Positions 28,384-30,132 of a DNA stretch of 32,834 nt are shown here, one piece after another (within the stretch, counting starts at the first letter, position 1; each line of letters starts with the position of its first letter). Made by a program: the position numbers and the translations under genes. Source of the DNA: a bacterium (GTDB lineage Bacteria > Zixibacteria > MSB-5A5 > WJJR01); assembly GCA_021813505.1 (NCBI GenBank), contig JAKAKI010000037.1, forward strand, positions 1 to 32,834, read 5' to 3'. Under the pieces are notes generated by a model, which searched no databases, had not been told where the DNA came from, and saw only the letters and a program-made list of their open reading frames with translations.

Positions 28384-29068
28384 TGATGGTCTCCCCGTCT
28401 GGTTCTGCCGGCAGCGCTCGGCGCAGGCGCCGGGAACAACCCATTCCCCTGCCCCGGCCCTACGTTCCGGCCACAAAGCTTATATCGGCAGTTTGCCACA
28501 CTCGTCCCGGCTGGGCCGGGTGGCCGCCGGGCGGGATGCGTGCGGGTCATGGCAATGAAGCACTTCATCGGTCAACGTCCCTGCAACCGGTTCCAATCAA
28601 CATCCCCCCCGCATGGTTCTCTGGTACGCTGCGGTGATCCCAATGAGCGGCACAGGAGGGTTTTACTCAAGGGCAATTGCAGTACGGAGATTCCGGCCGG
28701 GAAAGCGGTGCGTGACAAGCGAAGGTGTGTTCAGCACTGGCTGAAAATCCGCATGCACAGTATCCGGTTGGAAATCAAGCTCATCAGACGCCGGGTGTCA
28801 AAACCACGAACAGTGGGGACGTGCGCGGCGGCCGCGTGGCCATGATTGCAACCTGTTGAAAGGCAAGCGACAAGGCGTCCCGCCTATTCCAAAGCCGCGC
28901 TCATGATGCACGCCACGTTCAATCCTCCACGCAATTCGGCCGGATGAAAAAAGAAAGAGAACACCAAAATGGTGCCGACGTATAAAACATGAGGTGCAAA
29001 GGTCATGATCCGTCAGTGGCGGGAAGGGAATCCTGGCCGGAATGGGATTGAGTCCTGGGGAGGGTCAG
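28384..29068. other. ~685-base divergent intergenic region
   Basis: It separates glgB (minus) from the Panacea-type gene (plus). No supported gene. A plus-strand frame from ATG 28555 stays open for about 97 codons but has no ribosome site and is rich in Arg, Cys and Pro in no recognisable pattern. A 13-codon mini-frame (MKKEREHQNGADV, 28943-28984) sits just before the promoter-like TATAAA at 28981. Confidence 0.5.
28962..28986 (+). promoter_or_regulatory. Promoter-like -10 with adjacent dyad upstream of the Panacea fusion gene
   Basis: TATAAA at 28981-28986 is a near-consensus -10. The dyad CACCA-AAA-TGGTG (28962-28974) lies within what would be the -35 to -10 spacer, a classic position for an autorepressor. 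The -35 itself is weak. Confidence 0.3.
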
Positions 29069-29944
29069 ATGGTTGAGGTGGCGCTGTCAAAGACGGAGCG
29101 CGTGATCAAGCGCGCGACGCCGGCTCCCAAGCTGAAGGAAATTATCATCTACGTTCTCGATTTGTGCCGCCACAAACCGATCGTTGGTGAAGCGGCCCTC
29201 AACACCATCCTCTACTTTGCCGACTTCATCCATTACGCCACAAGCGGCCGCTCCATCACCGGGGTGCGCTACATCAAAGAGAGCCATGGTCCGGTTCCCG
29301 CCGAGGATGCGTTGACAGCGGCTTGGGATGAACTGGTTGCCGAAAGCCGGCTGCGCGTGCGCGAGGAGTTGAGCTTTGATTCGCCGAAGCGCGTGCCGAT
29401 TGTCATCGGGCGCGCGGACCGAGCGCTCTTTGCGAAATCCGAGCTGGAGATCGTGGATTTTGTGCTGAATCATTTCTGCAAGTACTCCACCACAGAAATC
29501 GCCGGCATCACCAGTTCGGATTTGGGCTGGCGGATGGCAGAGCTGGGTGCGGAGATTCCCTATCACACCGTCTGGATCAGACGGCGCAATATTCTGACCG
29601 CGGATGCGGTGGAACGCGCCATGATGCGTGCGCGGCTGGCGCACAAGGGTGTGAGCGACAGTTCGATGTCATGGGGGCGCGTGGCCAGTTCGCATCCCTT
29701 TGACGCCAATTGGCAGCGTCTGGAGCGCGAACACCCGCGCGGCGCCGATGTGCTAGCGGATATTGTCTACGTGCTCTCCAGGGAGCCACGGCAGTTCAAC
29801 AAAGTGGATGACGCCTCGCGGTTGTGGGCGGTCCGGACTGATGAAGGACCGTGGGAGCGGACACCGGCACTGGATGTCGTCTATCAGATCGACGAGCTGA
29901 TGGGGACAGTTACGCTATTGTCCGCCGAGACGGCCCAAGTGTAG
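29069..29944 (+). CDS. Panacea (SocA-like) antitoxin domain fused to a RelE/ParE-like domain
   Basis: 291 residues from ATG 29069, with GGGGAGGG five bases upstream. Residues about 20-170 match the Panacea/DUF4065 (SocA-like) pattern: KLKEIIIYVLDLC, then LNTILYFADFIHYATSG, then ITGVRYIKESHGPVP, where Panacea usually has 'KLLYFAD..hy...G..itg..y.a..hGPV'. Residues about 205-291 look like a RelE/ParE fold: FDANWQRLEREHP, two helices, then LWAVRTDEG and ALDVVYQIDELMGTVTLLSAE, matching the terminal strand pair 'RvvYrid...~tv.vl'. Panacea domains serve as antitoxins or chaperones beside many toxins; a single-chain fusion would be self-neutralising. The RelE part is inferred from pattern only. No separate toxin gene adjoins it. 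Confidence 0.7.
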   Translation: MVEVALSKTERVIKRATPAPKLKEIIIYVLDLCRHKPIVGEAALNTILYFADFIHYATSGRSITGVRYIKESHGPVPAEDALTAAWDELVAESRLRVREELSFDSPKRVPIVIGRADRALFAKSELEIVDFVLNHFCKYSTTEIAGITSSDLGWRMAELGAEIPYHTVWIRRRNILTADAVERAMMRARLAHKGVSDSSMSWGRVASSHPFDANWQRLEREHPRGADVLADIVYVLSREPRQFNKVDDASRLWAVRTDEGPWERTPALDVVYQIDELMGTVTLLSAETAQV

Positions 29945-29990
29945 CAGGCTGCTCAACGCCCCCGCAGATGGTGCGTCAGCCGGAATTGTC

Positions 29991-30062
29991 GTCCTGAGCG
30001 GAGCGAAGGACCTGTTTTTTCTACCCACGAAGACACAGCAGATGCTTCGCTGCGCTCAGCAT
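29991..30062. repeat. Inverted pair of CCTGAGCGnAGCGAAGGAcCTG repeats
   Basis: GTCCTGAGCGGAGCGAAGGA followed by CCTG (29991-30014) and the inverse CAGATGCTTCGCTGCGCTCA followed by GCAT (30039-30062) are separated by 24 bases. This CCTGAGCGAAGCGAAGGATCTG element is a common dispersed intergenic repeat. A small hairpin TTGACC-TTTTG-GGTCAA (30068-30084) follows. Nothing else is visible in the 188-base gap. Confidence 0.75.
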
Positions 30063-30132
30063 AACACTTGACCTTTTGGGTCAATGGCGCAGTGTATTCA
30101 ATAACCTGCCAGCAGTCTCAATAACGGAACTG

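What the first reader, a model, noticed from the sequence alone, without database searches (positions are those of the whole stretch)
29069..29944. Single-chain Panacea antitoxin - RelE/ParE-like toxin fusion
Seen: the N-terminal half carries the Panacea/SocA signature (LNTILYFADFIHYATSG, KESHGPVP) and the last ~85 residues have a RelE/ParE-like strand pattern ending LDVVYQIDELMGTVTLLSAE. Known: Panacea domains neutralise many unrelated toxins, normally encoded as a separate adjacent gene. Inference: a fused toxin-antitoxin could be a self-inhibited effector released by proteolysis, or a domesticated regulator. It sits alone between two glycogen operons with a dyad over its putative promoter, consistent with autoregulation.
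Basis: partly seen in the sequence, partly recalled or inferred. Interest (0 to 1): 0.72.

Follow-up and report, generated by a model that had tools for sequence, protein, structure and literature searches.

The report
Fused Panacea antitoxin and RelE-fold toxin
A groundwater bacterium carries one gene that joins an antitoxin and its RelE-like toxin, normally two separate neighbouring genes, into a single protein, so the toxin probably stays switched off by its own other half until something triggers it.

Summary
ORF 29069-29944 (+, 291 aa, Zixiibacteria MAG) has a Pfam SocA/Panacea domain and a ~90-aa C-terminal domain that matches nothing in Pfam, NCBIfam or PDB by sequence. (1) In about a dozen related Panacea loci (same phylum and viral contigs) a small separate ORF lies directly 3' of Panacea. 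A profile built only from eight such ORFs finds the window's C-terminal half at E=7e-10 (35.6 bits; best of 2000 shuffles 5.9). (2) AlphaFold2 gives β-α-α-β-β-β (pLDDT 86.5). (3) The first 31 PDB Foldseek hits are HigB, RelE, YoeB or other RelE-fold proteins. The fused ORF is conserved in a second species (95% aa) under purifying selection in both halves (dN/dS about 0.06 and 0.02), like its glgB and malQ neighbours. The fused Panacea half has lost 15 of 39 residues that separate relatives almost always keep. Canonical RelE catalytic residues are not evident, in the fusion or its split relatives. Most likely a self-inhibited single-chain toxin-antitoxin switched by a signal (CapRel-like); a domesticated regulator is the main rival. 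Fused RelE-family TA genes are known, but no Panacea one was found in the literature searched: a new variant of a known kind.

The parts
29069..29944 (+). Fused Panacea / RelE-fold ORF, 291 aa plus stop (alternative in-frame ATG at 29042)
   Evidence: same fused frame in a second species, L002/L004, 95% aa identity
29057..29064 (+). Shine-Dalgarno-like GGGGAGGG before ATG 29069
   Evidence: sequence; GGAGG core conserved in L002
29201..29530 (+). SocA/Panacea domain PF13274 (residues 45-154)
   Evidence: E 9e-14 to 2e-13, above the curated cut-off
29642..29680 (+). Junction/linker (residues about 192-204), where separate relatives have the antitoxin stop and toxin start
   Evidence: alignment A8; low-pLDDT loop between helix 178-191 and strand 205-207
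29669..29935 (+). RelE/HigB-fold toxin-like domain (residues about 201-289)
   Evidence: profile of stand-alone downstream ORFs hits here, E=7e-10; AF2 pLDDT 86.5; Foldseek PDB
28962..28974 (.). Short dyad CACCA-AAA-TGGTG upstream; conserved in the second species but not above chance

Best explanation
The gene encodes one polypeptide made from a former two-gene Panacea (PanA) antitoxin / RelE-fold toxin (PanT) operon, joined by loss of the antitoxin stop. Shown: domain identity, predicted fold of the C-terminal half, homology of that half to separate genes directly 3' of Panacea, conservation of the fused frame in two species, purifying selection on both halves. Inferred: the Panacea half holds the attached toxin half inactive at a fixed 1:1 ratio. 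Since a covalently joined antitoxin cannot be selectively lost, the toxin is switched on by a signal that rearranges the Panacea half (CapRel-like), not by antitoxin decay. Target (ribosome/mRNA, gyrase or other) and trigger are unknown. The fusion/fold part I hold at about 0.93; the self-inhibited, signal-switched mode at about 0.5.
For: Panacea. Split homologues, same order, overlapping or nearly abutting: L005, L006, L007 in the phylum and L061, L063, L065, L067, L068, L069 on viral contigs. Independent profile of eight stand-alone ORFs hits window residues 201-289 at E=7e-10 against 2000 shuffles. In L005, L061, L068 and L069 the downstream ORF is in the same frame directly after the stop, so stop loss suffices for fusion. 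[quoted passage not shown] PDB hits HigB2, RelE, YoeB, probability 1.00, TM to target up to 0.77. Full chain pTM 0.77, so the domain arrangement is predicted fairly confidently. Selection: NG86 dN/dS 0.031/0.50 (Panacea half), 0.0098/0.40 (toxin half), comparable to glgB 0.014/0.416 and malQ 0.029/0.442. Precedents: CapRel (PMC9712102); 195 fused BECR-fold TA genes (PMC11980606); Panacea proposed as a sensory domain (PMC10440598).
Against: The fused Panacea lacks 15 of 39 positions kept in at least 80% of split relatives (24/39 kept, while each split relative keeps 32-36 of 36-38), including K43, K46, R114, S145 and H149, invariant in all 15, so part of the antitoxin function may be lost or changed. 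RelE-type catalytic basic residues are not evident, though the mapping is weak. The gene sits among core metabolic genes, not in a mobile or defence region, and PADLOC gives no hit.
Confidence: 0.55

Rival explanations
1. Domesticated fusion: the toxin has lost toxicity and the two-domain protein now serves as a housekeeping or regulatory protein (for example a DNA- or protein-binding regulator near glycogen genes).
For: 15 of 39 near-invariant Panacea positions lost; very long branch for the fused pair; single copy at the same place between glgB and malQ in two species; constraint like core genes; no canonical RelE catalytic set.
Against: Split relatives also lack an evident catalytic set, so its absence does not show loss. 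The toxin half is under strong constraint (2 nonsynonymous to 21 synonymous codons). No regulatory link to glycogen genes was found and the upstream dyad is not above chance.
Confidence: 0.33
2. Ordinary type II addiction module that happens to be fused, acting through loss of an unstable antitoxin.
For: Relatives are classic antitoxin-first gene pairs, partly on viral contigs.
Against: A covalently joined antitoxin cannot decay separately from the toxin; no internal start with a good ribosome site was seen near M200 (sequence); the locus is chromosomal and core-like.
Confidence: 0.07
3. The C-terminal half is only a Panacea extension, or the fusion is an assembly or sequencing artefact.
For: The C-terminal half has no Pfam, NCBIfam or single-sequence PDB match.
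Against: The same fused frame is in the genome of a second species with 67 synonymous and 14 nonsynonymous codon differences; homologues are separate genes; RelE fold.
Confidence: 0.03

Closest known systems
PanAT (Panacea/SocA-DUF4065) toxin-antitoxin pairs (Kurata et al. 2022, PMC8832971)
   Same: Panacea domain; antitoxin-first order; ParE-type toxins are among the reported partners; clear split homologues of this very pair found here.
   Different: Here both halves are one chain; the fused Panacea lacks many near-invariant residues; no fused PanAT is mentioned in that paper's text ('fused' and 'fusion' 0 hits).
Fused BECR-fold toxin-antitoxin mono-gene modules (YefM-YoeB, ParD-ParE, HigB-HigA, RelE-YiaG, BrnT-BrnA; Gerdes 2025, PMC11980606)
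   Same: Single gene joining a RelE/ParE-superfamily toxin and its antitoxin; antitoxin-first order also occurs (YefM-YoeB, ParD-ParE).
   Different: Antitoxins there are YefM, RHH, HTH and similar types; Panacea/SocA is not mentioned in the main text.
CapRel fused toxSAS toxin-antitoxin (PMC9712102)
   Same: Covalent, self-inhibited antitoxin domain that can double as sensor; family has both fused and unfused forms.
   Different: Toxin is an alarmone-synthetase-like tRNA pyrophosphorylase placed N-terminally; its antitoxin domain is not Panacea; trigger known there, unknown here.
RelE / HigB2 / YoeB toxins
   Same: Fold of the C-terminal half (Foldseek probability 1.00).
   Different: About 10-21% identity in the structural alignments; canonical catalytic basic residues not evident; no Pfam-level membership.

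Membership tests
SocA/Panacea (PF13274) | Domain profile match above curated cut-off | tested here: met
   51.4 bits against 25.7
SocA/Panacea (PF13274) | Near-invariant residues of the closest Panacea clade | tested here: inconclusive
   24 of 39 kept, against 32-36 of 36-38 in every split relative
PanAT type II TA pair | Two adjacent genes, antitoxin and toxin | tested here: not met
   One ORF in two species; split pairs are in other genera
PanAT type II TA pair | Toxin inhibits growth and Panacea neutralises it | not testable with these tools
   Needs expression assays
[quoted passage not shown]
   AF2 pLDDT 86.5; Foldseek PDB top 31 hits
RelE/ParE (BECR-fold) superfamily | Sequence-profile match to a RelE/ParE Pfam or NCBIfam family | tested here: not met
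   Window half: none; one split relative touches ParE_toxin at E=0.0044
RelE-type ribosome-dependent RNases | Catalytic basic residues (E. coli RelE K52, K54, R61, R81; from my knowledge) | tested here: inconclusive
   Weak hhalign mapping puts D269 at R61, and no conserved basic residue is seen in strands 2-4 of the family
Fused toxin-antitoxin mono-gene module | Both halves homologous to the two members of a split TA-like pair | tested here: met
Fused toxin-antitoxin mono-gene module | Isolated toxin half toxic, neutralised by the antitoxin half | not testable with these tools
   Needs expression assays

The most novel reading that the evidence does not exclude
A Panacea domain has become the built-in lock and sensor of a RelE-fold toxin: a CapRel-like, signal-switched single-chain effector (for example against phages) that arose by stop loss from a phage- and bacteria-borne PanAT pair. 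It would let the proposed sensory role of Panacea be studied in cis.
Probability: 0.35. Interest if true: 0.65.

Novelty: new variant of a known kind. Interest (0 to 1): 0.5.

Why it matters
Panacea neutralises many unrelated toxins, and what it senses is an open question. A natural single-chain Panacea-toxin fixes the ratio, rules out simple antitoxin decay as the switch, and gives one protein in which neutralisation and triggering can be tested. It also adds Panacea to the known list of antitoxin types fused to RelE/ParE-superfamily toxins, and it comes with a family of split relatives for comparison.

Tried and rejected
Single-sequence searches of the C-terminal half in Pfam, NCBIfam and PDB found nothing, and a PDB search with its alignment gave only spurious helical matches, so fold comparison and neighbour genes were used. 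More fusions were sought: none in 132 genomes of the phylum besides the two species, none on plasmids, phages or viral contigs; the one whole-collection genome scan returned only the second species. The Panacea tree does not place the fused pair: it is a long branch drawn next to the outgroup. An empty-site comparison in the same-family genome G002 failed because its contigs break near glgB and malQ. Autoregulation from the dyad was rejected as evidence (not above chance). No Rfam element in the region, no PADLOC hit. The difference in dN/dS between the halves is not significant (Fisher p=0.48).

Full report
Observation. The ORF at 29069-29944 (+) is real: 291 codons, a GGGGAGGG ribosome site before ATG 29069, and the quoted motifs in place. 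The longer start at 29042 (300 aa) cannot be excluded. The genome is a Zixiibacteria MAG; a same-genus genome, G001 (public contig JACRMA010000124.1), carries the same fused ORF at 95% amino-acid identity. Pfam places SocA/Panacea at residues 45-154, well above its cut-off. The last ~90 residues match no family by sequence.

What the C-terminal half is. The closest Panacea proteins in the phylum end just where the window's C-terminal half begins, and a small ORF follows: L006 (92 aa, overlapping the antitoxin stop), L007 (99 aa, ATGA overlap) and L005 (85 aa, six bases after the stop). Viral contigs found with the Panacea profile repeat the arrangement: L061, L063, L065, L067, L068 and, by its GTG start, L069; L077 is a weaker case. 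A profile built from eight of these stand-alone ORFs, with no window sequence in it, hits the window at residues 201-289 with 35.6 bits, E=7e-10; the best of 2000 shuffles of the same residues scores 5.9 bits. In L005, L061, L068 and L069 the small ORF is in the same frame directly after the antitoxin stop, which makes stop loss a sufficient route to the fusion.

Fold. [quoted passage not shown] Foldseek against PDB returns RelE-superfamily proteins for the first 31 places: HigB2 (5ja8), M. tuberculosis RelE (9g12, 3g5o), E. coli RelE (4fxe, 2kc8), YoeB (7v5y), and in place 31 the CRISPR-associated, ribosome-bound Cami1. E-values are modest (7e-4 at best) but probability is 1.00 for the first 27 and TM-scores to the target reach 0.77. 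The full chain is predicted at pLDDT 83.2 and pTM 0.77, with an ill-defined N-terminus and a short loop at the junction.

Is it functional? Between the two species the fused gene shows 67 synonymous and 14 nonsynonymous codon differences. NG86 dN/dS is 0.031/0.50 for the Panacea half and 0.0098/0.40 for residues 201-291, in the range of glgB and malQ from the same pair; the difference between the halves is not significant (Fisher p=0.48). The C-terminal half is therefore not decaying. However, the fused Panacea has lost 15 of 39 positions that at least 80% of split relatives keep, six of them invariant in all 15 (relatives-to-window: K43A, K46T, F49Y, R114G, S145A, H149S), whereas each split relative keeps nearly all. 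Something about the antitoxin half changed after, or with, the fusion. Possible meanings, all inference: loss of contacts needed by a free antitoxin (dimer, operator, recycling), or a new trigger.

Mechanism. In a fused pair the classic scheme of antitoxin decay cannot work as usual. The best precedent is CapRel, a fused TA whose antitoxin domain doubles as a phage sensor without leaving the toxin (PMC9712102). The authors of the 2023 PanA study proposed that Panacea may be mainly sensory and cite CapRel for activation without dissociation (PMC10440598). I therefore favour a self-inhibited, signal-switched effector, at about 0.5. The toxic activity is open: by a weak mapping RelE R61 corresponds to D269, and no conserved basic residue is visible in strands 2-4, in the fusion or the split family. 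ParE toxins also lack the RNase residues (PMC11980606), so a gyrase-type or other target is as plausible as mRNA cleavage. A domesticated, non-toxic regulator remains a real rival at about 0.33.

Context. The gene stands alone on + between minus-strand GH57/DUF3536 plus GlgB and minus-strand GH77 plus CBM48 genes; the rest of the window is core-like (secretin, T2SSE, T2SSF, thiolase, CoA ligase). There is no mobile-element or defence signature. The upstream dyad is short and not above chance, and no promoter-like site was found, so the autoregulation argument carries no weight.

Known or new. PanAT pairs, ParE-type partners of Panacea and fused RelE/ParE-superfamily TA genes (195 listed) are all known (PMC8832971, PMC11980606). 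A Panacea-RelE single chain was not found in the open-access papers searched; subscription papers and supplementary tables were not searchable, so priority is not proven. I rate it a new variant of a known kind.

Noticed in passing
L009:2022-2321 (-), L013:2046-2351 (-), L011:2052-2375 (-): In three Zixiibacteria-phylum loci the RelE-like partner ORF lies 3' of Panacea on the opposite strand (tail to tail), overlapping or abutting its stop. Profile hits: L009 1.5e-5, L013 5e-4; L011 links to L013 at 7.5e-6. A convergent TA pair cannot be co-transcribed, which is unusual.
   Followed up: partly
L010 (reverse strand), L071:2107-2490, L008/L048: A second Panacea branch pairs with a longer (~125 aa) downstream protein in L010 and L071; in L010 and L008 the Panacea carries an N-terminal HTH-like region, and L071 is a Methanobacteriales phage where the pair sits next to the integrase.
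   Followed up: no
L005:2050-2061, L061:3029-3037, L068:3038-3046, L069:3023-3028: Antitoxin and toxin ORFs are in the same frame separated by a single stop codon and at most two further codons, so one base change would fuse them.
   Followed up: partly
window 29984-30069: Imperfect 39-nt inverted repeat downstream of the fusion with core GTCCTGAGCGGAGCGAAGGAC, present at 5 places in the genome (0 for the reversed control) and absent from the same place in the second species: a dispersed intergenic repeat.
   Followed up: partly
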